Shown: positions 37,797 to 61,476 of the stretch, piece by piece
Position numbering within the stretch: position 1 is the stretch's first letter
Layout of the letters: the number at the start of each line of letters is the position of its first letter
From: Fusobacterium ulcerans
GTDB taxonomy: Bacteria > Fusobacteriota > Fusobacteriia > Fusobacteriales > Fusobacteriaceae
Assembly (NCBI RefSeq): GCF_003019675.1
Contig: NZ_CP028105.1
Location: 2,062,282 to 2,126,281 of the forward strand
Length of the DNA: 64,000 nucleotides
Direction: 5' to 3'
The notes under the pieces: model-generated
Databases searched by the model: none
What the model saw: the letters and a program-made list of their open reading frames with translations, nothing else
Told to the model about the DNA's origin: nothing
Position numbers and translations under genes: made by a program

Positions 37797-40700
37797 ATGA
37801 TTAGCAATTTTAGTGAAGTAGAGAAATCTCTAAAGAGATGTCTAAAAGAAAAAGTATCAATAACCGCAGCCACTGTGGTAGGGTTCCTAATAGCTGGAAC
37901 GGTAGCATTTGGGGTAGAAAAAACTGTAACTTTTACAACAACAACTGATGGACAAGTGACAGTTCAAGTAGAAGGAGTAGAAGGAGCAGCTCCAATAACT
38001 GGTGCTAATAAGTCTATTTCTGTAGAGAAATATCTTGAATTAGTAAAAGCTGAAACTGAATCAGAACAAGCAGGAGCTCTTGCAGGTTTATTAACTGTAA
38101 AAACTGATGATAAGGGAGTAACTACTTTTGCTGGAGCTGTTGGAGGAGAGGATACTTTAGGAACAGTTTCAGCAACTGCAACAGATAAAGGAGCACTTAC
38201 TCTTATAACAACAGATGAGACTAATACATCAATAACAAGTAGTTTAAAAATTGAGGCTGCTGGAGAAGAGGGAAAACTAGCTACAGCAATGTCAGCTGAT
38301 GGAGAAGGACATACAGTAACAAATGATGGAGCAATCGCAGTTGGAAAGTATGCAGTTGGTATGTCAGCTAAAAATGGTGGAACTGCTGTAAATAATGCAG
38401 AAAAAACAATTACTGTAAATGGAACAGGTGCAGTTGGTATGTCAGCTGAAAATGGGGCATCTATTGAAAACCAAAAAGATGCAACAATTGCAATAAGTAG
38501 TGCTGCTGGTAAGGGAATGGTAGTAACTGGAAATGGAACAGCAACAAATGCAGGAACTATTGAAGTAAATAATGAAGAATCAGTAGGTATGTTGGCTACT
38601 ACAGAAGCAGGACAAACAGCTACTTTAATAAATAATGGAACAATTGATGTACAAGCTGGTACAGGTATAAAAGTTGCTGGAGAAGGAACTACAACAATAA
38701 CTGGTGGAACAATAACAGGAACAACAACAGCTGTAGGAATAGATGTAGCTAGTAGTACTGGAACTCTAACAATAAAAAATACAAAAATTACTGTTGGAGC
38801 TGGAGGAACAGGAATTAAGGCTACAGGAAATACAAATATAACACTTAAAGATGGAGTTATTCTTGGTCTAAATGCTGCTGGAACAGGTATTGCTTATACT
38901 GGAGATAATGGTACTACAGTAACAACAGCTAATATATCTACAGGAGATATTGATGTACAAGCTGGTAATGGAATAATTGCAACTATGTCAAAAGCAACTG
39001 GAAGTACTCTTGATATTACAACTGGAACTATTAAAACAGAAAACTCTAAAATTGGTATTAAAATAACTGGAGCAGATGGTGCAACAACAAGTAAAGATAA
39101 AGAAAATACTACTGCCACTGTAACTACTACATTGGGAGAAACAGCTGGAACTGGAGTAAGTGTAGCAGGAGAAGCATATAATGATATTACTGTAAATCTT
39201 GGAGCTGCTGATGTAGCAGCAATAGCAGAAGAAACATCTAAAGCAGAAGTATCAGGAACTGGAGTAGAAATAACTGCTAATAAAGCAAATGGAAAAGTAG
39301 TTGTAAATGTTAACCAAGATAACCTTCAAGTAACAGATGGAAAAAAATTAGTTGGAGTAACTGCTAATGCTGGAGATTTGACTATAAATACAGAAAAAGC
39401 TGTAGAATTATTAACTGGAGCTAATCTAGTTGATGTAACTGCCAACACTGGAAACTTAACTGTAAACCTAAATGCTGATAAACAATCAGTAGTAAAAGGA
39501 AGCTTAGTAAATATAGCAAGTGCTACTGGAACTACAAATGTAAATATTAATGAAAATGTTGAACTTAAAGACAACGATGGAAGCATAGTTAAAGCTGCTA
39601 TGACTGCTGGAAAATTAAATATAAACCTTAATGTTGAAGGAGATGGATTGACTGTAGGAGCAGATAAAGTAGCTCTTGATTTGTCTGGTGTTGCTTCTTC
39701 TGGTACAGCTTCAGTTAAAAATACTGGAAGTGTAACAATAAAAGGAACTGGAACATTAGTTGAAGGACATGGAAGCAATGCTACTACAACTCTTACTAAC
39801 CAAGGATTAATTACTGTAAGTGCTGTAAATGCATCAAATCCTAATGACAGCTCTCATATCTCAGTAAATAAAGTAGCTGTAGAAAACTACGGAACTATTA
39901 AATTAGATATAAGTTCAGAAGACTTTATAGCTAAAGCTGGAGATACAGCTGCAGGAAAATCTTTAGATCAATTAACTATAGCGGAAGTTCAAACTGCTTT
40001 AAGTACTTTAGGAGTAATAGGTAGTTCAGATGAAGCTTTCTCATCTATCGGATATATTGATTTTAAAGATGAGGATAAATCATTCACTACAGCTAAAGAA
40101 CTTTCTGGAGAAGAAACAGTAGATGATCTTGCTGCAAATCTAGATCACCAGCCAGAGGATGAAAGAGGATTTGAAGTAAAAGCAAATAATACACTTACTC
40201 TATCTTCAGAATCTAAAAATGATAAATTAGAAAATGTACAATTTAACTTAAAAGGTACAATGGAAATAGGCGGAACAGAAGAAGTAAAAATTGATAATGC
40301 TGGTGCTGGTGTTAAAAATCAAATACAGATTAAAGAAGATGGTCAATTAAAAGTAGCTGCTGGAGCAGAATTAAATTATTCAGGAAATATATCAGCTACT
40401 AACACTGAAAATACAGCTTCTGGTAAGGCCGCTATTATAAATGAGGGAACTCTTACTCTTTCAAACGGAACTCTTAATATGGTAGAACCAGACCCAAATC
40501 CACAAGTACCAGTAATGGCTTCAGTATTTTCAGCACCAACAGATAGAGTGGCAATATTTGTAGATGGAGATAAAATTACTAACTTAGATGGCTTCACTAT
40601 AAATGGTAATATTTTAGGAAAACTTAATGTTAGTTCTTTACAAGGAACAATCAACTTTAAAGGAATTTCAGCTGTAAACGGTACAGTTACTGATATAAAA

Positions 40701-42086
40701 ACTATTGAAGTTAAAGATGGAATGCTTACTTTTGGAGCAGACTCTGCAATAGTATCTAATGCTACAACAGAAACAACTGACATAAAGCTTACTGGTGGTA
40801 AAATGGGAGTAAAAATAGGAGAAAATGGTGGAAATGTACTTGAAAATTCTGAAGGGGAAATAAAATTTACAGGACTAAACCAAACTGGAAAAGTAGTCCT
40901 ATTAACTGGTGATCTTACAGAGAATACTACATTTAGATTAGGAACTCATACAGGATTAAATGATGGAGATGTAACAGCTGATGGAGATATTTACTACAAA
41001 ATAACACAAGGTGAAGGTGGTAAATGGAATGCAACATTTAATGAAGATGCTCTATTAGAAGCAACTGGAACTAAATATTTGGAATTAGGTAATATATTTG
41101 TTGGTACTCAAGCAATTCATGACCTATTATCAAAAGATCCTAATGTAAGAGTAGCTCAATTAGATGATCTTTACTCTAACAATATCTATTCTGAAACTGT
41201 AAAAATGTCTTTAGATACATTGAAAATGAATGAAGATGCAGTTTTATCTCTAAATGTAAGACCTAAACAAGGTGAATTCACTGCTCAAGGTAAATTCCTA
41301 TTCAATAATACTGATTATGATAGAGAAGGAGTAACAAGAGATTACAAAGTTGAAACTAAAAACAATGGATTGTTAGGTGTTTTAGAATATGGATTAACTG
41401 ATACTTCATCAGTAGGATTCGCATTCTCTGGAACTAAACAAGATCTTGATATGAAAAATGGAGCAAGCGCTGATGGAGATGCTTTCTACTTCGGACTATA
41501 TAGAAATGATACATTCAACAATATAGATTTAACTACTGGATTAGGATATATGATAGACAGAGTAGATGCTGAAAACTTTATCGGAAAAGATAAATTTGAT
41601 TCTACAGCTTTAAGTGGATATATCCAAGGTAAATACAATTATGCAATAGGAGAAAACTTAACATTATCTCCAAAAGCTAGATTGACAGTAACTAGATTCC
41701 AACAGGATTCTATCAATAATGGAAGAATGAAACAGGAAGAAATCAAAGATACTATAGCTGATGTAGAATTAGGAGTAGAACTTAAAAAAGGAATAGCACT
41801 TGAAACAGGTAAAATGAATTTGTTGGCAGGAGCAAGTTTCACTACTAATGTAGCTGGAAAAGATGACGACTACTACAAAGTAAACTTCATAAGTAAAGCA
41901 GGAAATAATGGAGCTTCTACAAAAGTTAAAGGAGCAAACTTAGAGAAAAACAGTTTGAAACTTAATGTAGGAGCAGATGTAGAATTAACAAATGGTGTAT
42001 TCTACAATGGAGGATTGTCTTATGAATTTGATGACGAAGACAGAGATTCTATTGGAGTTACATTAGGAGCAGGATACAAATTCTAA
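37797..42086 (+). CDS. Type V autotransporter adhesin, complete
   Basis: An outer-membrane autotransporter of 1429 residues. The N-terminal 1-40 form an extended signal peptide (VEKSLKRCLKEKVSITAATVV and more hydrophobic residues to GTVAFG), with the long charged leader usual in these proteins. The passenger at about 41-1130 is Gly/Thr/Asn/Val-rich, with repeats such as AVGMSAKNGGTAVNNAEKTI and GTGIKATGNTNITL, indicating a beta-helix. The barrel covers about 1140-1429 (KFLFNNTDYDREG, GFAFSGTKQDLDM, LGAGYKF at the end). ATG 37797 follows GGGAGGAATATAGTT. It is flanked by HU-like genes on both sides. Ligand unknown. Confidence 0.93.
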   Translation: MISNFSEVEKSLKRCLKEKVSITAATVVGFLIAGTVAFGVEKTVTFTTTTDGQVTVQVEGVEGAAPITGANKSISVEKYLELVKAETESEQAGALAGLLTVKTDDKGVTTFAGAVGGEDTLGTVSATATDKGALTLITTDETNTSITSSLKIEAAGEEGKLATAMSADGEGHTVTNDGAIAVGKYAVGMSAKNGGTAVNNAEKTITVNGTGAVGMSAENGASIENQKDATIAISSAAGKGMVVTGNGTATNAGTIEVNNEESVGMLATTEAGQTATLINNGTIDVQAGTGIKVAGEGTTTITGGTITGTTTAVGIDVASSTGTLTIKNTKITVGAGGTGIKATGNTNITLKDGVILGLNAAGTGIAYTGDNGTTVTTANISTGDIDVQAGNGIIATMSKATGSTLDITTGTIKTENSKIGIKITGADGATTSKDKENTTATVTTTLGETAGTGVSVAGEAYNDITVNLGAADVAAIAEETSKAEVSGTGVEITANKANGKVVVNVNQDNLQVTDGKKLVGVTANAGDLTINTEKAVELLTGANLVDVTANTGNLTVNLNADKQSVVKGSLVNIASATGTTNVNINENVELKDNDGSIVKAAMTAGKLNINLNVEGDGLTVGADKVALDLSGVASSGTASVKNTGSVTIKGTGTLVEGHGSNATTTLTNQGLITVSAVNASNPNDSSHISVNKVAVENYGTIKLDISSEDFIAKAGDTAAGKSLDQLTIAEVQTALSTLGVIGSSDEAFSSIGYIDFKDEDKSFTTAKELSGEETVDDLAANLDHQPEDERGFEVKANNTLTLSSESKNDKLENVQFNLKGTMEIGGTEEVKIDNAGAGVKNQIQIKEDGQLKVAAGAELNYSGNISATNTENTASGKAAIINEGTLTLSNGTLNMVEPDPNPQVPVMASVFSAPTDRVAIFVDGDKITNLDGFTINGNILGKLNVSSLQGTINFKGISAVNGTVTDIKTIEVKDGMLTFGADSAIVSNATTETTDIKLTGGKMGVKIGENGGNVLENSEGEIKFTGLNQTGKVVLLTGDLTENTTFRLGTHTGLNDGDVTADGDIYYKITQGEGGKWNATFNEDALLEATGTKYLELGNIFVGTQAIHDLLSKDPNVRVAQLDDLYSNNIYSETVKMSLDTLKMNEDAVLSLNVRPKQGEFTAQGKFLFNNTDYDREGVTRDYKVETKNNGLLGVLEYGLTDTSSVGFAFSGTKQDLDMKNGASADGDAFYFGLYRNDTFNNIDLTTGLGYMIDRVDAENFIGKDKFDSTALSGYIQGKYNYAIGENLTLSPKARLTVTRFQQDSINNGRMKQEEIKDTIADVELGVELKKGIALETGKMNLLAGASFTTNVAGKDDDYYKVNFISKAGNNGASTKVKGANLEKNSLKLNVGADVELTNGVFYNGGLSYEFDDEDRDSIGVTLGAGYKF

Positions 42087-49128: not shown

Positions 49129-49239
49129 TTTTTGTTTCCCCCTGTCCCATATCTGATTTAATTTTTTCAAGTATTATGCCTATATTTTAACCTATTATGA
49201 CAGTGAAAGTAAAGAGAACATTTAATTAAAAAAATGAAA

Positions 49240-49270
49240 AAGAGGCGACCCGAAAGTCAGCCTCTTGATA
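49240..49270 (-). terminator. Terminator of the two-component/secreted-protein operon
   Basis: GCCTCTT/AAGAGGC (49260-49266 and 49240-49246) with an inner GAC/GTC stem is followed on the minus strand by TTTTTCATTTTTTT. It ends the leftward run that includes the small secreted protein. Confidence 0.85.
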
Positions 49271-49301
49271 TTTTTAATGGTTGGAAGTTATTATTTTTAT
49301 T

Positions 49302-49664
49302 TTATTGTTGTGGTTTGTTTACAAGATTTTGATTATATTCAACTCTTGTTTTCATAGCAGTTGTTCTCATTCTTCCTTGTTCATTAGCAATTTCAGTATT
49401 TAGCTTTTCAACTTTATTCCAATCTGGTTTATCTTTGATAAGCTCTTTTTTGATTTCTAATCTTTTTTCATCCATAACAAGTCTTGATCTTTCCATTTCA
49501 GGACTTCTTTTAAATCCATTCTGATTTGCTCCTGAACCACAGTATGAAGATCCTGAATGATGGTATCCTCTACCCATATCCCCATTCCAATTTTGATGTC
49601 CTCTAGCAAATGCTGTAGCTCCTAAAGCAAATATCATAATTCCTATTATTGTGAATTTTTTCAT
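49302..49664 (-). CDS. Small His-rich secreted protein, Spy/CpxP-like candidate
   Basis: 120 residues from ATG 49664 after GGAGGGTGATAATT. The signal peptide is about 1-20 (MKKFTIIGIMIFALGATAFA). The mature N terminus is His/Gly/Trp-rich (GHQNWNGDMGRGYHHSGSS), a possible metal-binding region. The C-terminal helices (RSRLVMDEKRLEIKKEL, DWNKVEKLNTEIANEQGRMR) resemble the Spy/CpxP/ZraP helical hairpin, which acts as a periplasmic chaperone or metal buffer. It follows the sensor kinase by 57 bp, as such partners commonly do. Family assignment is tentative. Confidence 0.7.
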   Translation of the reverse strand: MKKFTIIGIMIFALGATAFARGHQNWNGDMGRGYHHSGSSYCGSGANQNGFKRSPEMERSRLVMDEKRLEIKKELIKDKPDWNKVEKLNTEIANEQGRMRTTAMKTRVEYNQNLVNKPQQ

Positions 49665-49721
49665 AATTATCACCCTCCATATATTTTGTTCTTTCTTATG
49701 TAACAAAATAATATCATGTGA

Positions 49722-51050
49722 TTATGACCTCAGTATGTCAAACCAAAAAGTAAATTTTTTATCCTTTAAATCGATGCCGCAATTAATTTTATTTAATTCC
49801 ATAATTTTTTTTACTATTGAAAGTCCCAGTCCATTTCCGTCAATGCTTAACTCATTTGCATTATCTCCACGAGAAAAAGGTTCCCATAATTTAGATATTT
49901 CTCCAGTTCCTTCTCCATCAACACTATTTTCAATGCAGATTTTTCCATCAGTTTCATAGATTGAGATAATATCATTTTCTTTAGAATATTTTAAAGCATT
50001 TTGAACAATATTATCCAAAGCTATTTTAAATATCTTTATATCACAGAAGATTTTCTGTTCTTTGAGTTTTATATCCCATTCAATATCTTTTTCAAGTTCC
50101 AGCATTTCGTATTTTTCTATACTTTGTTTTAAAATATTTAAAATATTAGTTTCGTTCATTTCTAGTTTTATTCCAGGGGAAGAAAGTCTTGAAATAGTAA
50201 GAAGATTTCCAACTAGTTCATTCATATCCATACTTTCTTTTGCTATTGCTTTATAATATTGAGATTTCTCCTGATCAGTTTTAACTATTCCGTTAATAAG
50301 AGCCTGAGCATAAGTACTTATAACTGTAATAGGGGTTCTCAACTCATGAGAAGCATTTGAAGCAAAAGCTTTTAGATTCTCAATAGAAAGAGAGAGATTA
50401 GCAGACATTTTATCAATACTCTGACTTAGCTCTTCTATTTCATCTCCACTATCAACATCAGCTTTTTCAGAGAAATCCAGTATAGATATTTTACCTGCTA
50501 CTCTATTTAGTTTTTTTATATTTTTAGTTATCTGTTTAGAGAAAACTCTTCCTATTAGCATACTTAAAAGTACCGATGTTACAGTTGTAATAAAATTAAA
50601 TACATACATTTCATGTTTATGTGCACTCATAACAGATAGAGAGGTTCTTAAAGCAAGAATACGTCCATCAGGGAGTACTTCATTATATATGAGAAGTTTT
50701 ATATTTGTTTTTGAAATACTTGTAACGCTGAAACCTGTAGGAGGAGCATCATTGTTGTGCATATCCTCTCTTCTTCCTCTCATTTTATGCATGCCATTTT
50801 TTTTAAATACGCTTATATCTATTCCTTCTTTGTCCCTTAGGTCTTCTACATATTCTTTAAAAACTTCCTCATTATTTAGAAGCGATTTGGAAATCTCAAC
50901 AGCTTCCATCATTTTTTCTTTTTTTCTATATACATAGAAATCATCAAGAAAAAATATATTGAGGATATATCCAGTTAAAACAGTAAAGATAACTATAAAG
51001 ACTGAAAAGATAAAAATTTTCTGGAAAAAATTAATTTTTATTTTCATCAA
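49722..51050 (-). CDS. Two-component sensor histidine kinase
   Basis: A 442-residue membrane kinase. TM1 is at about 10-35 and TM2 at about 147-168, with a periplasmic sensor loop of about 110 residues between them (contains MHKMRGRREDMHNND). A HAMP segment follows (KKLNRVAGKISILDFSE). The phospho-His lies in ASHELRTPI, the N box in DNIVQNALKYS and the G box in GNGLGLSIVKKI. It overlaps the response-regulator gene by 20 bp. The signal may be envelope stress or metals, given the His-rich partner. Confidence 0.93.
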   Translation of the reverse strand: MMKIKINFFQKIFIFSVFIVIFTVLTGYILNIFFLDDFYVYRKKEKMMEAVEISKSLLNNEEVFKEYVEDLRDKEGIDISVFKKNGMHKMRGRREDMHNNDAPPTGFSVTSISKTNIKLLIYNEVLPDGRILALRTSLSVMSAHKHEMYVFNFITTVTSVLLSMLIGRVFSKQITKNIKKLNRVAGKISILDFSEKADVDSGDEIEELSQSIDKMSANLSLSIENLKAFASNASHELRTPITVISTYAQALINGIVKTDQEKSQYYKAIAKESMDMNELVGNLLTISRLSSPGIKLEMNETNILNILKQSIEKYEMLELEKDIEWDIKLKEQKIFCDIKIFKIALDNIVQNALKYSKENDIISIYETDGKICIENSVDGEGTGEISKLWEPFSRGDNANELSIDGNGLGLSIVKKIMELNKINCGIDLKDKKFTFWFDILRS

Positions 51051-51696
51051 ATATGTACCCCATTCCTCTTACAGTTTTTATCATATCACTATAGTCACCA
51101 AGCTTCTTTCTAAGCCTTTTTACCAAAGTGTCTACAACTCTGTCGTCGCCTTCAAAGTCAAAACCCCATACTTCATTTAAAAGTACATCCCTTGAGAAGA
51201 TTATCCCCTTATTTTTTATAAGGTATTCTAAAAATTGAATCTCTCTTCTTGTGAGTTCAATACTTTCGCTGTTCACTATAAGTTCTCCACTTCTGAAATC
51301 AAAAGAGAGATTATTAAATTTATAAGAACTATTTTCATCTATTTTAAGCATTTTTTTGATTTTTATATTTAAAACCTTCAAACTGAAAGGCTTTGTTATA
51401 TAATCATCAGCTCCAATACTTAATCCTTTTAATTCATCAATTTCTGAATCTCTGGCAGTCATCATTATTATAGGAATATTAGATTCTTTCCTTATATTTT
51501 GACATACTTCCCATCCATTCATTTTTGGAAGGTTTATATCAAGAAGTATAAGATCAGGATTATGTTCATAAAACATTTCCAGAGCAGTTTCTCCATCCAA
51601 TGCCTTATAAGTAAGAAAAGACTCTTCTAATAGAGTATCTTCTATTACTTTTATTAAATTTTTTTCATCTTCTACTATTAATATTTTTTTTGTCAT
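51031..51696 (-). CDS. OmpR/PhoB-family response regulator
   Basis: 221 residues. The receiver domain at 1-115 has acidic pair VEDE near residue 8, phospho-Asp in LILLDINLPKMNGW and Lys in ADDYITKPFSL. The winged-helix output domain at about 125-218 has ELTRREIQFLEYL and DDRVVDTLVKRLRKKLG. It is partner of the overlapping kinase and lies 19 bp after the giant DUF4132-like gene, suggesting co-transcription with it. Confidence 0.95.
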   Translation of the reverse strand: MTKKILIVEDEKNLIKVIEDTLLEESFLTYKALDGETALEMFYEHNPDLILLDINLPKMNGWEVCQNIRKESNIPIIMMTARDSEIDELKGLSIGADDYITKPFSLKVLNIKIKKMLKIDENSSYKFNNLSFDFRSGELIVNSESIELTRREIQFLEYLIKNKGIIFSRDVLLNEVWGFDFEGDDRVVDTLVKRLRKKLGDYSDMIKTVRGMGYIFDENKN

Positions 51697-51715
51697 ATCT
51701 TATCTCCATGTTATT

Positions 51716-54700
51716 TTAATTTTGATTATCAGCGTGACTGAAAATATGATTTAAATCATATAAAATGTCTGATAAAATTCTAATAGGTATTTTTGAAAAT
51801 GATTCAATGATGTTGTTTTGGATATCAAAAAAAGTTACTGAATCAATAGAAACTGTTTTTTTACTATTAGGAGCAGCAGTATTTTCATATTGAATTTCTA
51901 ATTTAACAGCCAGATTATCTTGAAGATATGCTTTAAGAAAAACATTTTCATCAATTTTTTCCCATCTGTGATCAATAAGAAGTTCATATAAAATATTATA
52001 GCAAAGATATTTGTCAAGAAAATGAATTATTTCCTTTTTATAAGATTCTTTATTTTTTAGTAGATAAGTTTCCATTTCAAGCTGTTTAAATTCCTGAATA
52101 ATATTATTCTTTTTAAAATAATTTCTGAATTTTTTTATAGTATCAGCAGGCATTTCCAATGGATGAGCTATTTTTATTTTATTTGATTTTCCAACTGAAA
52201 TTGATTTACCTTCCAATGTAATAAAAAAATCTCCTTTAGGAAATCCAAAATGTTCCCCATCAATATCGAATATAATATTTTTTATAATTAAAGAAGTTAA
52301 AGGATTTTTACTGGCAAGAGATATCTCAGTATGTAGCATTTCACTTCTTGTATTCATACAAAATTTAAGATGTTCTATTAAATCTTTTATTAGAATATTA
52401 TAATTTCTTACAGCCTCATAAGCTTTCATTATATATTTTTCTCTTTGATAACTGTTTGGTTTTTCTGTATCATATTTTTTTAAGACAAACTTATCTGGTG
52501 GAATAAAATCAATATATGCAGCTGTTATATGATCATTTTTTAGAAAATTTCTTAATAAAGGCTGATGCTCTTTATCCAGACTCAACTCTAAGAATACTCT
52601 TGAAGAAAATCCAATATTATCCAAAAAATTATTTAATGCAACATTAGTTATTTCTAACTGGCTTTTTGTTATTGAGTCATCTGTTCTAGCTCGATATCTA
52701 ATAGTATCATAAATGTCTTCAATTGATTTATCCAAAAGTTTTCCATAAGGGAGAAGAGAATAACAAAGCATGGCTTTCTTATTCTTGTTCTCTATCTCTT
52801 TTTCTAAAGAATCAATATCTTTAAAATTAAAAATACCAGATAAAGATGCTGTGAATTTTTCAGAAATTTCAGATTTTATAAGATTGGTTTTAAAAGAACC
52901 ATAAATTTGTTCAAATTCTAATTCTCCAACTGAATCATGGAGTTTTCTAAACCATTTAATATCAAACCTTCCTTTTTCAAATTCTTCAGGTTTTATTGAA
53001 GTATATTTAAGGAGGGTCATTCTGTTTTTAAAGTTTTTTTCATAGTTTAAATGAGCTTTAAAGAACCAGTATACTTCATCTAAATATTTATAATTTAGGT
53101 AGAGAGATAATATTTTCCTCCACTTTAAAATATGAACTGCTGTAAATAACAAAGCTTTTTTCAATGAATAAGGATTATCCAGTAAAAAAGTTAATTCTTT
53201 TATGTCTGCTACTGTGTCATTTCTAGCAGGTTGAGAAATTGAAAGAAGATAATTTAAAGTTTCTTTTTTTGTCAGAAATTTTAATGAAAAATCAGCTACT
53301 ATTTCGATTTTATTATATTCCATAGTTTCTAATATAGAAAAAAGAAGAGATACTCCTTCTACTTTCTTTAAAGCAGGAACTAAATGAGTCAGCTCACTTT
53401 TTTTGAAATGACTTTTTCTGTTTCTTTCAAGTCTTACTATGGCTGAAACTATTTTTGATTCTGCTTTAGAATCAAAAGGATATTTTTTCTTTTCATCATA
53501 AGATAAATTTAAAAAGTCTGAAAGATGCTTAAAGCAATTTTCTCTTTCAAGAAGCTCTTTATAGACTTCATCTGATGAAATAAGACCCATATTAAAAGCT
53601 TTGATATAATGTAGTATATTTAATTTATTAAATTCATAAAAATTACTTTTATAGTAGAAAACATAATAAGTAGAGAAAAAAGTTCTAAACATATTAGTAC
53701 TTCCTAGTTCTTTATCAGATATAAGGGAGAACAAAGCTTTCATAAAATTAATTATTTTAATGTTTAAACATTCTCTATCAGACAGTGTTTTAAAAAAACA
53801 GTTTATGAGATCCATTTTTACATTAAATACTTCTTTTGCGTTAAATTTAACATAATATTTCTTTTGTATTTTTTCTAATATTTTTTGAGGAGTATTATTT
53901 TCTTTTCTAGCAAGAATAGAAATTTTTTTCATTTTTTCTATGTTGAAACTGTTTGATATAGAAAGTGAAAAAGTAGAATGAGTTCTGTTATTTACTTTAT
54001 TTTCTAAATCAAAAAACTTTTCAAAAGTCAGAGCAAAATTTATTTCAAGTAAATTACTTAATGAAAAATCTTTAAGAAAATGATAAGATGTAAATCTATT
54101 TAGCTCAAATTCAAAATCTTTTATATTTAAATTAAAAAAGTCTTTAATAGAAGAAATTTCAGAAGTAACAGTATTTTCTGGATCAAATAAAAAGGGAGGA
54201 TTTTCAGAATTATATATTCCAAATCCACTTCTTTTAACTGTTTTTCGCAAATATATTTTTTCTTTTTCACTGGCTTCTTCAGTTTCTTCTTCTAATGAAA
54301 TTGCTTCCTTTTTTTTCTTTCTCATAGAGGCATTTTCTTTTTTTTGCTTATATTCCTGAAAAAAGAAAGGGAAGCTAGCATCATTCCGAAGACGTTTTAA
54401 AAATATTTCTGTTGCTTCTTTTTTTAAAGGATTATTTTTTGAAAGGATAATTTCACTTACAATTTCCAACATTGAATCCTTTTCAAAGCCTAAAATATGT
54501 GTAATTATTAATAGTCTGTGGGAAGTTTTTATAGAAGAATTAAAAAGATTTATAACAGCTGTTTTTTCTTCAGGAGCAAGAATCTTTTTAGATCTTTTTA
54601 TGGCAAGGACTGCTCTTTCTTTTAAAAGAGAAGATCCCTCCTTTAAAAGAAAAAGAACGAATTTTTTTTGCCTTTCTGTTCTTCCTCCTTTTACAAAATT

Positions 54701-56071
54701 AATAAGAAAGAAAAGAATTACTTCATCAACTGAATATAATACAATATCACAAAGTTTATCAATTTTTTCTTCTGAAAAATTGTCATAAACAACAATATCG
54801 AAAAGTTTAAAAAATATTTCTTTAGGGTCTTTTATATATTCAGACCAACAAAAAGGTTTTTCATAAGAATATAAATACTGACTCATTTCTATTGCTAAAT
54901 TATAAAATACTTCAAAATGTTTCTCCAAAGTATTAGCATCTTTTAAAAATGAGTTTGCAGAAATAGTTGTCATCTTTTTTTGCTCTTCTATTGAATATTT
55001 AAATCCTTTTGCTGAATTAGGATAAGTAACAGAGGTTACATAATTTTGAATAACATAATAAGCATATAGAGGATTTATTTTTTTTTTCATTCTAAATAGA
55101 GTAGCTTCTATTTTTTCTTCTTCAGTACCAATTAAATGGAGGTAATGGAGAGCATTCAGAATTTCTATATTATTTTTTCCAGTATTTAAAAGCAAAAGTT
55201 TCTCTTTCATTGCAGAAAGATTTCTTAATCCGTCAGCCCAAAGAGAGAAAAAAATATATTCAGATTCATTCCCCTGAGAATATATTACATTTTTTTTATT
55301 TTTATCAATAAGCACATCATTTATTATAGTAAAAAATAATTTTATTTCATCAGTGTATAAAAATATTAATTTAATTCCAGTCCAGCCATAGATTGAATCT
55401 ACAACTTCATTAGAATAGTAGAGCTCCTTATCTAAAATAAAGCTGATGAGAGTTTTAAATGCTTCAATATGCCCACAATCAGCATTAGAAAGAATAGATT
55501 TCTTTAACTCAACATCAGTATTTTCGTTAAGGAGAAGCTCAAATAATTTTAAATGAAGAGAATTAAGGGAACTTTTTATTATTCCTCTAATTATATCAGG
55601 ATTAATATAGGAATTGTTTTTTTCTATATGTGCTGATAAAAAAGGTAAAAGTTTTTCAGTTCTATTATTGATTCCATAAGCAAGTATATCTTCAATAATG
55701 CAATTATCTGGAATATTTTTTGATTTGGCAAGATTGAGAATATTAAAATCGTCATTCCATAGTCTTAATAAATTCCATAATTTATTTATTGCAATGGGAA
55801 AATAAAGTTCAAAATTATTTTTATCTCTAAAAGAAGTTTTTAGAGGATCAGTTTCATAGGTGAAATTTAGGGTATCAGCCCATATTTGATTTAATATTTT
55901 AATAAATTCTTTACCATAAAGAGTTTCAAGCTGTTTAAAAAATTTACATTGAATTGCATCTAATAGAGAAGTGTGATTATCCTCAAGTATCAAATTTTTA
56001 GCAAAATCAAAAAAATCATTTTTACTTTCTAATTTTTTGTTTAATTCAAGATGTAATTTATTAATGTCCAC
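51716..56071 (-). CDS. Giant DUF4132 (MolR-like) domain protein
   Basis: 1451 residues with no signal peptide or membrane segment, so cytoplasmic. The first roughly 600 residues are helical and HEAT-repeat-like. A charged linker lies near 585-615 (KQKKENASMRKKKKEAISLE). The C-terminal third has the DUF4132 hallmark KIKIAHPLEMPADTIKKF with a following QEFKQLE segment, and the preceding YRARTDDSITKSQLEITN. E. coli MolR/YehI-type proteins share this domain; function is not established. The start is GTG 56071 after GGGGGAATT. It is upstream of, and only 19 bp from, the response-regulator gene, an unusual partnership. Domain call is by eye. Confidence 0.75.
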   Translation of the reverse strand: MDINKLHLELNKKLESKNDFFDFAKNLILEDNHTSLLDAIQCKFFKQLETLYGKEFIKILNQIWADTLNFTYETDPLKTSFRDKNNFELYFPIAINKLWNLLRLWNDDFNILNLAKSKNIPDNCIIEDILAYGINNRTEKLLPFLSAHIEKNNSYINPDIIRGIIKSSLNSLHLKLFELLLNENTDVELKKSILSNADCGHIEAFKTLISFILDKELYYSNEVVDSIYGWTGIKLIFLYTDEIKLFFTIINDVLIDKNKKNVIYSQGNESEYIFFSLWADGLRNLSAMKEKLLLLNTGKNNIEILNALHYLHLIGTEEEKIEATLFRMKKKINPLYAYYVIQNYVTSVTYPNSAKGFKYSIEEQKKMTTISANSFLKDANTLEKHFEVFYNLAIEMSQYLYSYEKPFCWSEYIKDPKEIFFKLFDIVVYDNFSEEKIDKLCDIVLYSVDEVILFFLINFVKGGRTERQKKFVLFLLKEGSSLLKERAVLAIKRSKKILAPEEKTAVINLFNSSIKTSHRLLIITHILGFEKDSMLEIVSEIILSKNNPLKKEATEIFLKRLRNDASFPFFFQEYKQKKENASMRKKKKEAISLEEETEEASEKEKIYLRKTVKRSGFGIYNSENPPFLFDPENTVTSEISSIKDFFNLNIKDFEFELNRFTSYHFLKDFSLSNLLEINFALTFEKFFDLENKVNNRTHSTFSLSISNSFNIEKMKKISILARKENNTPQKILEKIQKKYYVKFNAKEVFNVKMDLINCFFKTLSDRECLNIKIINFMKALFSLISDKELGSTNMFRTFFSTYYVFYYKSNFYEFNKLNILHYIKAFNMGLISSDEVYKELLERENCFKHLSDFLNLSYDEKKKYPFDSKAESKIVSAIVRLERNRKSHFKKSELTHLVPALKKVEGVSLLFSILETMEYNKIEIVADFSLKFLTKKETLNYLLSISQPARNDTVADIKELTFLLDNPYSLKKALLFTAVHILKWRKILSLYLNYKYLDEVYWFFKAHLNYEKNFKNRMTLLKYTSIKPEEFEKGRFDIKWFRKLHDSVGELEFEQIYGSFKTNLIKSEISEKFTASLSGIFNFKDIDSLEKEIENKNKKAMLCYSLLPYGKLLDKSIEDIYDTIRYRARTDDSITKSQLEITNVALNNFLDNIGFSSRVFLELSLDKEHQPLLRNFLKNDHITAAYIDFIPPDKFVLKKYDTEKPNSYQREKYIMKAYEAVRNYNILIKDLIEHLKFCMNTRSEMLHTEISLASKNPLTSLIIKNIIFDIDGEHFGFPKGDFFITLEGKSISVGKSNKIKIAHPLEMPADTIKKFRNYFKKNNIIQEFKQLEMETYLLKNKESYKKEIIHFLDKYLCYNILYELLIDHRWEKIDENVFLKAYLQDNLAVKLEIQYENTAAPNSKKTVSIDSVTFFDIQNNIIESFSKIPIRILSDILYDLNHIFSHADNQN

Positions 56072-56150
56072 AATTCCCCCTAAAATTATAATGCAAGTAT
56101 TATATTTATATGAAATATTATAGCATATAATAAATTATCCATAAATAAAA

Positions 56151-56180
56151 AATGTAGATGGCTTTTTAACCATCTACATC
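56151..56180 (-). terminator. Terminator after the regulator gene
   Basis: AATGTAGATGG at 56151-56161 and CCATCTACAT at 56170-56179 form the stem. On the minus strand it is followed by TTTTTATTTAT after the regulator stop at 56190. Confidence 0.85.
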
Positions 56181-56189
56181 TTAACTTAA

Positions 56190-57395
56190 TTAGAAGTTTA
56201 GTTTATATTTTTTAGCAGGTCTTCCAATGACTCCCTCTTCTAAAGTCATATCAGCAAGACAATTTTCTTCCAGCTTTATTAATATTCTGCTGGCAGTTCT
56301 CCTACTGAGACCTATATATCCAGATAACTCTTCAGCTGTTATCCAGATGTTTTTTTCATAGATTTTCAGCAGAGTTTCAAAAAGAGTTTTTGAGATATTG
56401 AGTTTTCTTAGTTTTTCATAGATACCAAAGTCTCTCACATCTTTTTTTCTGAGTCCTTTTAAAGCTGTAAATTTTCCTTTTTCGAGAAAATAACTGACTT
56501 CTTCCCCATATGCTTCACTTTTTTCATAAGCTTTTTCTGCATTGAGTCTAGCTTCTGAGATGTTGTCCCCACAACCCCAGCCTACTGTTATCGTGCCTAT
56601 TGCAGAAAAAACTTTTCCAGATAAGTTTTCTGTAAAATCAGTGAAATCTCCTTTAATCATTATTATCTCGATTTCATTTCCAAGTTCATAAATTATTGAA
56701 TTTTTAATATGTTTTTCTAATATAGATTTATAGTTTTTGTCAGTATCAAAATGTTTAATTTTTCCTACTACTATTTTTTTATCATCCAACCCTGCTATTT
56801 TTATTTCTGAAATCATATATTCGATAGTATCTTTTATATTATCCTCAGAAGGAAACAGGAATATAAATGGAATATCTTTCTTTTCAAGTTTTTCTGTAAG
56901 GTTGCTGAACCTTGTAATAGAGAGCTGTATTCTATTTTTTTCATGAAGAACAAAATGATTATGAAGTATTTTTTCATAAATTTTTGGATCTTCAATAATA
57001 AAGTCAGCAATAAGAGGTTCCTCTCCATCAAAGATATTTTTAAAATAAAAATCTTTGTTCTCTTTATTTATGAAGTCAATATATACTTTTGAAAAATCTA
57101 GATTGGGATTATTTTTCAGAACCTTAAAAAATGTTTCATAAAGCTCTTCTCTTTTTATCTCTAAATAATAAATAGGTTTAATAATTTTTTTTAATTTTCC
57201 TTCGAGAAATTTTTTTCCTAATTCTCCACTTGTAAGAAAAACATCAAACTTATGAAAATTTTTTTTATAGATATCCAGAGTCTCTTCCAATTTTTCATAG
57301 ATAAAATATTCTACACAATATTTATCTGTCTCTCTTATTCCTTTTTTTATAAAAGGAAGAGAGTTTTCAGGAGAGATTACTGCTATTTTGATCAT
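56190..57395 (-). CDS. Transcriptional regulator with C-terminal HTH, probable regulator of M20/GltS operon
   Basis: 401 residues. The C terminus has a winged-helix DNA-binding domain (TAEELSGYIGLSRRTASRIL and GVIGRPAKKYKLNF). Residues near 270-300 (AIGTITVGWGCGDNISEARL) resemble the degenerate GGDEF-like domain of CdaR/PucR-type regulators. The N-terminal part is a sensor region I do not recognise. The start overlaps the permease stop by 4 bp (ATGA), so it is co-transcribed with transporter and hydrolase and probably senses their substrate. Confidence 0.75.
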   Translation of the reverse strand: MIKIAVISPENSLPFIKKGIRETDKYCVEYFIYEKLEETLDIYKKNFHKFDVFLTSGELGKKFLEGKLKKIIKPIYYLEIKREELYETFFKVLKNNPNLDFSKVYIDFINKENKDFYFKNIFDGEEPLIADFIIEDPKIYEKILHNHFVLHEKNRIQLSITRFSNLTEKLEKKDIPFIFLFPSEDNIKDTIEYMISEIKIAGLDDKKIVVGKIKHFDTDKNYKSILEKHIKNSIIYELGNEIEIIMIKGDFTDFTENLSGKVFSAIGTITVGWGCGDNISEARLNAEKAYEKSEAYGEEVSYFLEKGKFTALKGLRKKDVRDFGIYEKLRKLNISKTLFETLLKIYEKNIWITAEELSGYIGLSRRTASRILIKLEENCLADMTLEEGVIGRPAKKYKLNF

Positions 57396-58762
57396 GCAGT
57401 TCTTCCTTTTTTATCCAGCAAGATTATGATTCCAAGGAATATTACTATAAGTCCAAGATTTAAAAATACTGGAACAAGAGGACCATAAGCTATACTCAAA
57501 GAAATACATGATACCATAAGGATAGGTCCCATAAGTGCTGTAAGAGAGAATCCTAGTGAATAATCTCCCAATACAGGTGTAGAAAATTCAGGATCACATA
57601 TCCTTAATAACAGAAGACCAGTAAGAAATACTCCAAGACAAGTTCCAAGCATTGCAACTGCCCTTTCAAATGCATAGTTTCCTTTGTAATATCTATATGA
57701 GAAGTATTTGATACACCACCAAGTAGCTATGAATCCAAGTATCATCATTGCCATTATTGGAACAAAGTATGAGAATACTGCCTTCAAAGGAAGAGTAGCT
57801 ACAGCACTTACTACTGCAAATTCAGTGAGCATACTTGTTATTTTACTTTTAACTTTAGTGTCAACACACCATTCTAACCCTAATTTTTTAATTGCTTTCC
57901 ATACAAGTATCATTATTACCATTGCAAAGGCCCATACAGAGAATGATGAAAGTACAGGGACCTTATATTTTTTTATGAGAGCAAGGATGATATATGAAAC
58001 ACCACACACTGAAAATATTATTGCCACATGAAAAGCAAGAACATCAATAGATGATGAAAGCATAGTTTCTCTTCCGATACTTGCTTGTTTAGTTATATCT
58101 GTATAGTAACCTCTTTTTAGTTCCATAGGTATGTCAGAAGGTTTTTTCAAAAGAGAAGTTTCACCCTTACGACATGCTCTATTGATTAAGAATATTCCTA
58201 AAAGAATTCCACCAATAAGACCAAAAGTTGCAGTAGTAGTGGCGATTCCCTGAGCTAATGCCCAGTAATCCATATTCATTTCATGCAGAGTTCTTCCTAT
58301 CATACCAGCTGTTCCATGTCCACCAGAAAATCCAGCATTTAACTCAACACCAAAAGATTTATAAAGATCAATATTGAAAAATTTTGTACATACAAAATTT
58401 ACAAAATATCCAATTATTTCTTGTAAGAATGTTACAACAAAAAGTATTCCTCCCATTATTCCAACATCTCTTACAACACCCTTCCCGTTGCTCCCTTTAA
58501 ATTCCAACCCTAAAGGAACAGCAGCAACAACTGGAACTATTAATATTCCAGGGAGAAGAACCATCTCTTTCAACCATGTAACAGGAAGAGAAAATGAAAA
58601 TATTCTTCCTAAAACTTCAGGCCCTAATATCAACCCTATAAATCCTCCTATGACAGAAGCTGGAATAAAAAGTTCCTGAAATACTTTGACCTTTGACTTA
58701 ATAAAAACTCCTAGGATAAGAAGAAAACTTAAATAACATAATACATAAAATATCTGCTGCAT
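57392..58762 (-). CDS. GltS-type sodium/glutamate symporter
   Basis: 456 residues, a polytopic inner-membrane carrier. It has the ESS-family features FIPASVIGGFIGLILGPEVLG at the N terminus and the pore motif GFSGGHGTAGMIGRT in the first half. Hydrophobic inverted halves and a hydrophilic loop near 195-225 are as expected. It lies 22 bp after the M20 amidohydrolase gene. Glutamate or an acyl-glutamate (for example aminobenzoyl-glutamate) is the likely cargo. Confidence 0.9.
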   Translation of the reverse strand: MQQIFYVLCYLSFLLILGVFIKSKVKVFQELFIPASVIGGFIGLILGPEVLGRIFSFSLPVTWLKEMVLLPGILIVPVVAAVPLGLEFKGSNGKGVVRDVGIMGGILFVVTFLQEIIGYFVNFVCTKFFNIDLYKSFGVELNAGFSGGHGTAGMIGRTLHEMNMDYWALAQGIATTTATFGLIGGILLGIFLINRACRKGETSLLKKPSDIPMELKRGYYTDITKQASIGRETMLSSSIDVLAFHVAIIFSVCGVSYIILALIKKYKVPVLSSFSVWAFAMVIMILVWKAIKKLGLEWCVDTKVKSKITSMLTEFAVVSAVATLPLKAVFSYFVPIMAMMILGFIATWWCIKYFSYRYYKGNYAFERAVAMLGTCLGVFLTGLLLLRICDPEFSTPVLGDYSLGFSLTALMGPILMVSCISLSIAYGPLVPVFLNLGLIVIFLGIIILLDKKGRTA

Positions 58763-58784
58763 TATAACCCCCCTTTTTTTAATT

Positions 58785-60185
58785 TTATAGTTCTATTGGC
58801 ACTTTATCATACTTTAAAGGTGAAACATATTCCTCATAATTTTCATCAAACTCTTTTTTTATTTTCTCATAAAGAGCAGGATCTTCAAGGATATCAATAG
58901 CAGTCTGTCCCAATACCTGACCAGCATATTTCATACCTTTCATTGCAATGCCATTTTTCCCTTGAGCTACCATCTGCCATGAGTGAGAAGGAGTCCCAAG
59001 AGCATAACAAGCTGTAAAGATTTGTCCAGTAGGCATTTTTTTACTTACATCTCCTACATCTGTAGAACCAGACAGAAGATAATTAAAGTTTTCATCATAT
59101 GGAATATTTCCTCTAAAAACATAGTCATTAAGCATCATATCTTTGATTTGTTTCCATTCTTTTCCACTGGCTTTTTCTATCCAGCCAAATTCAGAAGTTA
59201 TTTCTTTTTCAGTAAGAGTATCTTTGAATTTTTTAGCATAAGCAAGTTCCTCTTCTGTATATTCTATATTTTCAAATTTTTTCAAATTCTTAAACATTAC
59301 TTTTTCTATTTCTTTATTTCCTTTGTATTCATTAGTTCCTCTGTCAAAAACCATTTTAACTTTAGTTTCTGTCATAAGAGCAGCCCCTCTTGCTATATTG
59401 CATATTCTTTGGAATATTTCTTCTACCTGATTTAATTTTGGAGCTCTTACCAGATATAGAACTTCAGCATCAGGTTGTACAACATTTGGAGATATTCCTC
59501 CAGTATTAGTTACAGCATAGTGAAATCTAGCTTCCTGTATCACATGTTCTCTAAGATAATTGGCTCCTACATTCATCAGTTCCACAGCATCAAGAGCACT
59601 TCTTCCAAGTTGTGGACTGGCAGCAGCATGAGAACCTCTTCCTTCAAATCTGAAATATGCTTGATAATTTGCTAGTGTAGCCAGTGAGAAAACTCCGTTA
59701 TATGGGAAAGGATGCCATGTAAGAGCTAAGTCTACACCTTCAAAAGCACCGTTTTTCATCATCCATGTTTTTCCTGATCCACCCTCTTCAGCAGGACATC
59801 CATAGAAAACAACAGTTCCTTTTAACTTGTTTTCTTCCAGATAATTTTTTACTATTTCTGCTCCATAGAGAGCTCCAGCTCCAAGCAAATGGTGTCCACA
59901 TCCGTGACCATTTATTTCCTGTTTTCCTTTTTCTTTGTGAGTGACATCTTCTGCCTGTGAAAGTCCTTGAAGAGCATCATATTCTCCCAGTATAGCTATT
60001 ACAGGATGACCTTCACCATAAGTAGCTTTGAAAGCAGTTTCTAATCCACCTATTCCCATTTCTACCTGAAATCCTGCTTCACGAGCATATTCGGCTAACT
60101 CTTCTGCTGATTTGAATTCTTTGAATCTTATTTCAGCATATTCCCAAATATTTTTTGCAACTTCTTCAATAGTTTTTTTACTCAT
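58785..60185 (-). CDS. M20-family amidohydrolase, AbgB-like
   Basis: 466 residues, a metal-dependent amide hydrolase close to aminobenzoyl-glutamate utilisation protein B. Segments are AILGEYDALQGL, HGCGHHLLGAGALYGA, YGCPAEEGGSGK, a dimerisation region with GRGSHAAASPQLGRSALDA, and GSTDVGDVSKKMP. It starts at ATG 60185 after TGGAGGGGTACAA; the open frame extends to 60224 without a ribosome site. It is the first gene of the unit with GltS and the regulator. The natural substrate is probably an N-acyl amino acid or folate fragment. Confidence 0.88.
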   Translation of the reverse strand: MSKKTIEEVAKNIWEYAEIRFKEFKSAEELAEYAREAGFQVEMGIGGLETAFKATYGEGHPVIAILGEYDALQGLSQAEDVTHKEKGKQEINGHGCGHHLLGAGALYGAEIVKNYLEENKLKGTVVFYGCPAEEGGSGKTWMMKNGAFEGVDLALTWHPFPYNGVFSLATLANYQAYFRFEGRGSHAAASPQLGRSALDAVELMNVGANYLREHVIQEARFHYAVTNTGGISPNVVQPDAEVLYLVRAPKLNQVEEIFQRICNIARGAALMTETKVKMVFDRGTNEYKGNKEIEKVMFKNLKKFENIEYTEEELAYAKKFKDTLTEKEITSEFGWIEKASGKEWKQIKDMMLNDYVFRGNIPYDENFNYLLSGSTDVGDVSKKMPTGQIFTACYALGTPSHSWQMVAQGKNGIAMKGMKYAGQVLGQTAIDILEDPALYEKIKKEFDENYEEYVSPLKYDKVPIEL

Positions 60186-60250
60186 TTGTACCCCTCCATT
60201 TATTTTGGACATTGTTTTGGTCAAAATTATACTTGTTTTATTTCAAAAGA

Positions 60251-60306
60251 AGTATACTATATATTTTTTTATTGTCAATTATATTATTTTAATTGAAATA
60301 ATATAA
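60251..60306 (-). promoter_or_regulatory. Sigma-70 promoter of the M20 operon with an upstream palindrome
   Basis: The minus strand has TTGACA (60273-60278), a 16-bp spacer and TATACT (60251-60256). Directly upstream of the -35 box, at 60279-60306, TTATATTATTT and AAATAATATAA form a perfect 11-bp inverted repeat with 6 bp between. It is a candidate activator or repressor site for this divergent region. Confidence 0.65.
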
Positions 60307-60373
60307 CTGGTATATTTTTATCACGCCAATTATATCTTTTTGATATATGTTTTCTTATTCTAAATATCTTTTT

Positions 60374-60401
60374 TTGAATTGATTAAAAAATATGATATAA
60401 T
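60374..60401 (+). promoter_or_regulatory. Sigma-70 promoter for the small gene and Crp/Fnr gene
   Basis: TTGAAT at 60374-60379, a 16-bp spacer and TATAAT at 60396-60401 lie 35 bp before the start at 60437. Confidence 0.6.
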
Positions 60402-60436
60402 ATAAAATAAATCAAAATTCAGGGGGCATAAAATAA

Positions 60437-60808
60437 ATGAGCAGCAGAAGAGCATACTATGAACAAGAAAAAAATAATCTTAAAGAACTTATGATAGCAC
60501 TTCATTCCATTATAATTCAATCCCCTTATATAGCTTCAGTAAAAGGGGCAGAAGTAAATGTGAGTATAGCTTATGGAGTATGTCTAAAATTTATAAAGAA
60601 TATATTAAAAGAAAATGATGAAGTAGATTATGTAAAAGTAGAAGATATAATAGACTTTACAAAAAGAACAGCACTTTATCCAATGATGGATAAAAGTAGT
60701 ATAGATGGGAAAAAATTTGATATGGTAATAAAGGATATTGAAACTATTTTGAGAAATTGCAAATACATATCTGAAGCTGGCAGAAAACAAGCTAGGAGGG
60801 AAAAATGA
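60437..60808 (+). CDS. Unknown conserved-looking cytoplasmic protein
   Basis: A 123-residue soluble, helical protein with no motif I recognise. Segments are MSSRRAYYEQEKNNLKEL, YIASVKGAEVNVSIAYGVC and a basic C terminus SEAGRKQARREK. The ribosome site is CAGGGGGCATAAA. Its stop overlaps the Crp/Fnr start by 4 bp, so the two are translationally coupled, suggesting a joint role. No paralogue is in the window. Confidence 0.7.
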   Translation: MSSRRAYYEQEKNNLKELMIALHSIIIQSPYIASVKGAEVNVSIAYGVCLKFIKNILKENDEVDYVKVEDIIDFTKRTALYPMMDKSSIDGKKFDMVIKDIETILRNCKYISEAGRKQARREK

Positions 60809-61476
60809 TAAATTCAGAAAATGAAAATTTTTTTTCTGAGTCATTTCCATTTTGGAAGGCACTCTCTTCTGATGAAAAAAAACTGATAAATAATAATACG
60901 GAACTGAAATTATATAAGGCAGGAAGTACTATACATGATTCTACTGAATGTACAGGAGTTCTTTTGATAAAGTCAGGAGAATTGAGAGTATATATTCTTT
61001 CTCCAGAGGGAAGGGAAGTCACTTTGTACAGATTGGGAAGTGGGTCGACATGTCTTCTTACAGCATCATGTATTTTAAAAAATATTACATTTAGTGTAAT
61101 GGTAGATGCTGAGGTAGACAGTGAAGTATTTCTTATAAGTTCCTCTGCATTTAAAGAGCTGAAAAATAAAAATATACAAGTAGAAAGCTTCAGCAATGAT
61201 ATAATAAATTGTCATTTTTCTGAAACTATGTGGGCAATGGAGCAGATACTTTTTACAAGTTTTGATAAAAGATTGGCTTTTTTTCTGTTGGAGCAGAGTG
61301 AAGAGAAAAAGACTGAAACACTTAATTTTACTCATGAATATATTGCTAAAAATCTTGGAAGTGCAAGAGAAGTGGTATCTCGTATGCTGAAATATTTTCA
61401 GAATGAAGGAATTGTTTCTTTAGCTAGAGGGAGTATCATTATAAAAGATAGGAAGAAATTGGAAGAATTAAAATAA
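60805..61476 (+). CDS. Crp/Fnr-family transcriptional regulator
   Basis: 223 residues. A cyclic-nucleotide-binding-like jelly roll spans about 20-125 (LLIKSGELRVYILSPEGREVTLYRLGSG) and a C-terminal HTH about 150-215 (THEYIAKNLGSAREVVSRMLKYFQNEGIVSLARG). It lacks the N-terminal cysteine cluster of oxygen-sensing Fnr, although single cysteines occur (TECTG, STCLLTASC). The ATG overlaps the upstream stop. It may act on the divergent trxA/dehydrogenase promoters, where a TGTGA-N5-TCACA site lies. Confidence 0.9.
   Translation: MINSENENFFSESFPFWKALSSDEKKLINNNTELKLYKAGSTIHDSTECTGVLLIKSGELRVYILSPEGREVTLYRLGSGSTCLLTASCILKNITFSVMVDAEVDSEVFLISSSAFKELKNKNIQVESFSNDIINCHFSETMWAMEQILFTSFDKRLAFFLLEQSEEKKTETLNFTHEYIAKNLGSAREVVSRMLKYFQNEGIVSLARGSIIIKDRKKLEELK

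What the first reader, a model, noticed from the sequence alone, without database searches (positions are those of the whole stretch)
49240..56071. Giant DUF4132 protein apparently in one operon with a two-component system and a secreted protein
The 1451-residue gene ends 19 bp before the response regulator, which overlaps the kinase, which is followed by a small His-rich secreted protein and the first clear terminator. DUF4132 proteins have no settled role. The arrangement suggests the giant protein is part of, or controlled with, an envelope- or metal-stress response.
Basis: partly seen in the sequence, partly recalled or inferred. Interest (0 to 1): 0.65.

Follow-up and report, generated by a model that had tools for sequence, protein, structure and literature searches.

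The report
Giant solenoid gene heading envelope-stress operon
In a small group of related bacteria, a fast-evolving giant protein gene of unknown role sits directly in front of an older envelope-stress sensor pair and is probably read out together with it, but it lacks the control site by which that sensor appears to switch on its own target genes.

Summary
The anatomy is real. On the minus strand lie a 1451-aa DUF5724+DUF4132 gene, a 19-bp gap, an OmpR-type regulator, an overlapping kinase, a small secreted Spy/ZraP-like protein and a terminator. The order is kept in all four carriers among 61 related genomes. The gap holds only a ribosome site, and the giant gene has its own conserved promoter behind a conserved terminator. 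Co-transcription is therefore likely, although a candidate internal promoter exists.

The regulator-kinase-Spy set is older and widespread without DUF4132. Its likely binding box (TGACATA-N4-GGTCATA) precedes spy, a second spy, a TolC-MacAB efflux operon and a miaB-like gene: an envelope-stress regulon. The window holds one strong box, before spy, and none before DUF4132. The giant gene is thus probably an operon-mate placed upstream, not a target.

Canonical relatives elsewhere are DUF5724-DUF4132-DUF7737 proteins. In 69 of 79 loci they directly follow a roughly 139-aa protein with a predicted ubiquitin-like fold. Regulator and kinase genes adjoin in one locus. The window protein lacks DUF7737, the partner and most invariant residues, and evolves 3-10 times faster than its neighbours: a repurposed or decaying branch.

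The parts
51716..56071 (-). Giant gene, 1451 aa, GTG start: DUF5724 (alpha-solenoid) + DUF4132; no DUF7737; no signal peptide by eye (cytoplasmic, inferred)
   Evidence: ORF; Pfam; C-terminal half modelled as helical solenoid plus alpha/beta domain, pLDDT 77; dN/dS 0.29-0.34
56104..56127 (-). Promoter of the giant gene: extended -10 TATGCTATAAT, conserved in 4 species; no RR box
56147..56182 (-). Intrinsic terminator after the upstream HTH regulator gene; insulates the giant gene from it; stem kept with different sequence in 4 species
   Evidence: z -7.0 to -8.5
51697..51715 (-). 19-bp gap holding the RR ribosome site (GGAG); no terminator fold and no room for a promoter
51985..52018 (-). Candidate internal promoter inside the giant gene, about 300 bp before RR (TTTGCTATAAT; TGnTATAAT kept in 3 of 4 species); untested
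51744..51761 (-). 18-bp perfect palindrome ATATGATTTAAATCATAT in the last codons of the giant gene; region has raised codon conservation (rank p about 0.02); role unknown
51031..51696 (-). OmpR/PhoB-type response regulator, 221 aa
49722..51050 (-). Membrane sensor histidine kinase (HAMP, HisKA, HATPase_c), 442 aa
49708..49743 (-). Putative RR box overlapping -35 of spy, in the 3' end of the kinase gene: GTTTGACATACTGAGGTCATAA...TATTAT
   Evidence: score 40.4; next best in the 64 kb 7.7
49302..49664 (-). Small secreted Spy/ZraP-like protein, 120 aa
   Evidence: Metal_resist E 0.0077, below cut-off; signal peptide by eye
49237..49266 (-). Operon terminator hairpin, with counterparts in 4 species
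56190..60808 (.). Rest of the block that separates the Crp gene (60805-61476 +) from RR: HTH regulator, Glt_symporter-like, M20 amidohydrolase (all -), small ORF 60437-60808 (+). Crp and RR are direct neighbours in two sister genomes

Best explanation
The giant protein is a cytoplasmic alpha-solenoid protein, a derived branch of the DUF5724-DUF4132-DUF7737 family. In the ancestor of this four-species group a block ending in this gene came to lie between a Crp-type gene and the pre-existing regulator-kinase-Spy operon. This removed the regulator's own promoter and left it behind the giant gene. SHOWN from sequence: the block; the dedicated promoter; the insulating upstream terminator; the RBS-only gap; the single RR box before spy; the absence of a box before the giant gene. 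INFERRED: the giant gene's promoter sets a constitutive level of regulator and kinase by read-through; the kinase senses envelope damage; the phosphorylated regulator binds the direct repeat before spy, spy2, tolC-macAB and the miaB upstream region and activates them. The giant protein is an operon-mate and not a regulon member. Having lost the DUF7737 domain, the small ubiquitin-like partner and most invariant residues, it most likely keeps only a protein-binding scaffold role.
For: Linkage in 4/4 carriers. Own conserved promoter and terminator. Arrangement Crp|RR with an RR promoter in two sister genomes, which a tree places in the sister group. RR-kinase-Spy without DUF4132 across the family. 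Box found 41 times against 8 in reversed-pattern controls in 12 non-carrier genomes, before spy, tolC and macA-like genes. Giant gene's promoter scores -22.7. Canonical family has DUF7737 and a partner that this clade lacks. Near-invariant columns retained in all four orthologues: 28/74 DUF5724, 10/31 DUF4132, 3/30 linker, 0/33 DUF7737. Fast evolution. Solenoid model.
Against: No transcript data. A TGnTATAAT element lies about 300 bp before RR inside the giant gene, so regulator and kinase may have their own promoter. Deletion in the sister genomes instead of insertion cannot be excluded. The RR box is assigned to this regulator by position and co-occurrence, not by binding. Scaffold function is inferred from fold class only; Foldseek hits are weak (E >= 0.03).
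Confidence: 0.6

Rival explanations
1. Functional partnership: the giant protein is a cytoplasmic part of the two-component pathway, for example a scaffold or modulator of kinase or regulator, selected to be made in fixed ratio with them.
For: Tight linkage kept through 30-35% protein divergence; purifying selection persists (dN/dS 0.29-0.34).
Against: The system stands without it in most related genomes; RR and HK evolve 3-10 times slower with no matching change; canonical relatives are not linked to such systems; linkage could persist simply because the regulator's own promoter was lost.
Confidence: 0.2
2. The genes are neighbours only: regulator and kinase are expressed from an internal promoter in the 3' end of the giant gene, and the giant gene is an independent unit.
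For: Extended -10 TTTGCTATAAT at 52003-51995, TGnTATAAT kept in 3 of 4 species; raised codon conservation in the last 25 informative codons (rank p 0.017).
Against: No terminator between the genes, so read-through is expected anyway; -35 spacing is poor; the conserved codons may reflect protein constraint.
Confidence: 0.15
3. The giant gene is decaying cargo on its way to loss.
For: Lost DUF7737, partner and most invariant residues; fastest-evolving gene of the region.
Against: Intact frame of about 1450 codons in all four species and dN/dS well below 1.
Confidence: 0.05

Closest known systems
CpxAR-CpxP / BaeSR-Spy envelope-stress systems (E. coli)
   Same: OmpR-type regulator, HAMP membrane kinase, small secreted chaperone-like protein, tandem-repeat box at -35, efflux and periplasmic targets
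   Different: No curated CpxR/BaeR/CpxA/BaeS cut-off reached; box sequence differs (own knowledge of the Cpx box); giant gene in front in four species only
ModRS and CarRS of Fusobacterium nucleatum (PMC9239216, PMC12186487)
   Same: Same bacterial group (inferred); two-component systems with stress or surface-gene regulons
   Different: ModRS is linked to msrAB-trx-ccdA and CarR has a 17-bp AT-rich box; this locus has neither. Orthology not tested by sequence
D. radiodurans DRA0165-DRA0166 (PMC8533742, PMC9650054)
   Same: DRA0166 is a DUF5724/DUF4132 homologue; the pair is strongly induced on DdrO depletion
   Different: Has the DUF7737-type end and the small partner DRA0165; no two-component genes adjoin it in the region shown
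E. coli MolR/YehI-type DUF4132 proteins
   Same: Share the DUF4132 domain; the window's genome has its own MolR-like 1090-aa DUF4132 protein
   Different: The 1090-aa protein has no DUF5724 match; different subfamily

Membership tests
DUF5724-DUF4132-DUF7737 family (canonical) | DUF5724 domain above cut-off | tested here: met
   304.9 bits, cut-off 25
DUF5724-DUF4132-DUF7737 family (canonical) | DUF4132 domain above cut-off | tested here: met
   59.7 bits, cut-off 27
DUF5724-DUF4132-DUF7737 family (canonical) | C-terminal DUF7737 domain | tested here: not met
   Absent in the window protein and its 3 orthologues; present in the two canonical proteins scanned
DUF5724-DUF4132-DUF7737 family (canonical) | Small partner protein directly upstream | tested here: not met
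   69/79 canonical loci have it; no match in the window genome or its family
DUF5724-DUF4132-DUF7737 family (canonical) | Near-invariant residues of the DUF4132 region | tested here: not met
   10/31 in DUF4132 and 3/30 in the following linker retained in all four orthologues
OmpR-family two-component system | Receiver + winged-helix output; HAMP-HisKA-HATPase kinase | tested here: met
Cpx or Bae system (orthologue) | Curated NCBIfam score for CpxR/CpxA/BaeR/BaeS | tested here: not met
   CpxR 132 of 341 bits; BaeR 157 of 380; CpxA 109 of 486; BaeS 105 of 500
Cpx or Bae system (works like) | A common box before a secreted chaperone-like gene and an efflux operon | tested here: met
   Box before spy, spy2 and tolC-macA-macB
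Cpx or Bae system (works like) | Regulator binds the box and responds to envelope damage | not testable with these tools
   Needs binding and reporter assays
Spy/CpxP/ZraP (Metal_resist, PF13801) | Pfam cut-off reached | tested here: not met
   16.8 of 29.2 bits; resemblance only
Known anti-phage defence protein | PADLOC match | tested here: not met
   No match for the giant protein

The most novel reading that the evidence does not exclude
DUF5724-DUF4132-DUF7737 giants and their small beta-grasp partner with a conserved FxRLTMLxGR[ML]W tail form an undescribed bacterial ubiquitin-like two-gene system, possibly a protein-tagging or tail-binding machine. The window's gene is a branch that lost the modifier and the DUF7737 end and was rewired into an envelope-stress operon as a solenoid scaffold.
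Probability: 0.25. Interest if true: 0.8.

Novelty: new variant of a known kind. Interest (0 to 1): 0.5.

Why it matters
DUF4132 giants are common and unexplained. This work separates two questions that the operon seemed to join. The sensor system has a predicted, testable envelope-stress regulon of its own. The giant protein belongs to a family whose constant companion is a small, probably ubiquitin-like protein, not a sensor. That gives a concrete handle on the family's function and warns against reading function from this one neighbourhood.

Tried and rejected
Frameshifts in RR and HK of one carrier (G026) looked like loss of the sensor with the giant gene kept; all fall in A/T homopolymer runs and are probably sequencing errors, so they were not used. 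A viral-contig scan and a first genome-contig scan with clade-specific patterns found no relatives. PDB sequence search: none. PADLOC: none. Rfam around the operon: none. Papers: 3 mention DUF4132, none explain it; none mention DUF5724 or DUF7737 (subscription papers and preprints are not held). Foldseek hits of the solenoid are HEAT/ARM-like but too weak to name a fold. The palindrome at the end of the giant gene was considered as a regulator site and left open: it does not resemble the box.

Full report
CHECK OF THE OBSERVATION. All features exist at the stated place: DUF4132 gene 56071-51716, regulator 51696-51031, kinase 51050-49722, small secreted protein 49664-49302, terminator 49266-49237. 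Pfam shows DUF5724 (2e-90) as the main part of the giant protein and DUF4132 (4.5e-16) at its end. The small protein resembles Metal_resist (Spy/ZraP/CpxP type) below the cut-off, and has only 3 histidines.

THE ORGANISM. The window lies in a complete 3.54-Mb genome. That is an inference from gene content and base composition, not a tested identification. Names I give to relatives in the same order (Leptotrichia-like) are likewise inferred.

LINKAGE. Among 61 genomes of the family the giant gene is found in four, all of one genus. In all four it stands in the same order with the same neighbours on both sides. The gap before the regulator is 14-19 bp in three of them and holds a conserved GGAG; in the fourth (G026) the frames overlap by 8 bp, possibly through a homopolymer error. 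The gap does not fold. In front of the giant gene all four have a terminator hairpin whose stem is kept although its sequence differs, then a conserved extended -10 promoter. So the giant gene starts a transcription unit, and nothing visible stops it before the end of the small gene.

THE TWO-COMPONENT SYSTEM IS OLDER. Kinase and small-protein relatives occur in 45 and 50 of 61 genomes. The loci examined carry regulator-kinase or regulator-kinase-Spy without DUF4132. In two sister genomes the regulator lies directly beside the divergent Crp-type gene and has a promoter of its own. In the window the same Crp gene (60805-61476) and the regulator are separated by the block small ORF, M20, symporter, HTH regulator, giant gene. 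Close relatives of the HTH regulator (over 80% identity) are also confined to the four species. A tree of regulator plus kinase puts the carriers next to the two sister genomes and one more non-carrier. One insertion in the carriers' ancestor is the simplest history; a deletion in the sisters is not excluded.

PREDICTED REGULON. Upstream of spy in the closer species is TTTTGACATATTnAGGnCATAA followed by a -10, a direct repeat with 11-bp period, as OmpR-type regulators use. It also stands before the free-standing second spy gene, which shows that it is not just the coding end of the kinase. In the four carriers the pattern recurs before a TolC-MacA-MacB-type operon in all four and about 170 bp before a miaB-like gene in all four. 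In 12 non-carrier genomes there are 41 hits against 8 for the reversed pattern, and the best ones precede spy, tolC and macA-like genes. In the window the only good site is at 49708-49743, score 40.4 against 7.7 for the next best. The giant gene's promoter region scores -22.7 and the 400 bp before the regulator -13.7. Hence the response as predicted controls spy but not the giant gene. That the box belongs to this regulator is inferred.

INTERNAL PROMOTER. A TGnTATAAT element (52003-51995) inside the giant gene is kept in three of four species, and codon conservation is raised at its 3' end. It could give the regulator a second promoter. This is the main uncertainty of the operon claim.

THE GIANT PROTEIN. 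Canonical relatives were found in Firmicutes, Bacteroidetes, Deinococcus and others (363 loci matched, 80 kept). The two canonical proteins scanned have DUF5724, DUF4132 and DUF7737. In 69 of 79 loci a protein of about 139 aa precedes the gene directly and usually ends in GRMW or GRLW; most exceptions are contig ends. Apart from this no neighbour recurs widely, and regulator plus kinase on the same strand stand just downstream of it once. The partner's model (pLDDT 71) has a beta-beta-alpha...beta-beta-beta order, and most of its best PDB matches are ubiquitin, SAMP1, MoaD and similar proteins, the top one with probability 0.92 but E = 0.16. I regard a ubiquitin-like fold as likely, not proven. 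In D. radiodurans the pair is DRA0165-DRA0166, strongly induced on DdrO depletion (PMC8533742); removal of DRA0165 raised antioxidant capacity (PMC9650054).

THE WINDOW'S BRANCH. The window protein and its three orthologues stop where the DUF7737-bearing end would begin. There is no partner gene in the genome, and only 10 of 31 near-invariant DUF4132 positions and 3 of 30 in the following linker are kept. Identity to the window protein is 65-70%, against 95-96% for the regulator and 80-98% for the other neighbours; dN/dS is 0.29-0.34 against 0.03-0.13. It is under purifying selection, but loosely. The C-terminal half is modelled as a helical solenoid with an alpha/beta end (pLDDT 77).

VERDICT. 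Ordinary in part (a Cpx/Bae-like system with a plausible regulon), unusual in part (a giant gene placed as its operon head in one clade). The function of the giant protein is not shown. The most interesting lead, the probably ubiquitin-like partner of the canonical family, lies outside the window.

Noticed in passing
L114-L193 (e.g. L115:7573-7992 before L115:7986-13079); L104, L105, L108, L109: Canonical DUF5724-DUF4132-DUF7737 genes directly follow a ~139-aa protein with predicted ubiquitin-like fold and conserved C-terminal F[VI]RLTML[AS]GR[ML]W (69/79 loci).
   Followed up: partly
G000 C1:801013 (L210, L241) and the same site in G025, G026, G027, G028: Conserved RR box about 170 bp before a miaB-like gene, with a long conserved untranslated stretch after it: possible regulated small RNA or leader.
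   Followed up: no
G000 C1:2250451 (L240:721-4971): TolC-MacA-MacB-type efflux operon with a conserved RR box, predicted target of the window's two-component system.
   Followed up: partly
G000 C1:1308785 (L082:6777-7145): Second, free-standing spy-like gene with the same box, 61% identical to the window's.
   Followed up: partly
L009:9763-13035 (G000 C1:1377762-1381034): Second DUF4132 protein in the same genome (1090 aa, MolR-like, no DUF5724); best PHROG match phrog_20839 (E 1.8e-54).
   Followed up: no
window 51744-51761: Perfect 18-bp palindrome ATATGATTTAAATCATAT in the last codons of the giant gene, nearly unchanged in four species.
   Followed up: partly
L155: The only canonical locus with a same-strand regulator and kinase just downstream (+363 and +1120 bp).
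   Followed up: no
window 37797-42086: 1429-aa autotransporter (beta-domain at the C-terminus).
   Followed up: no
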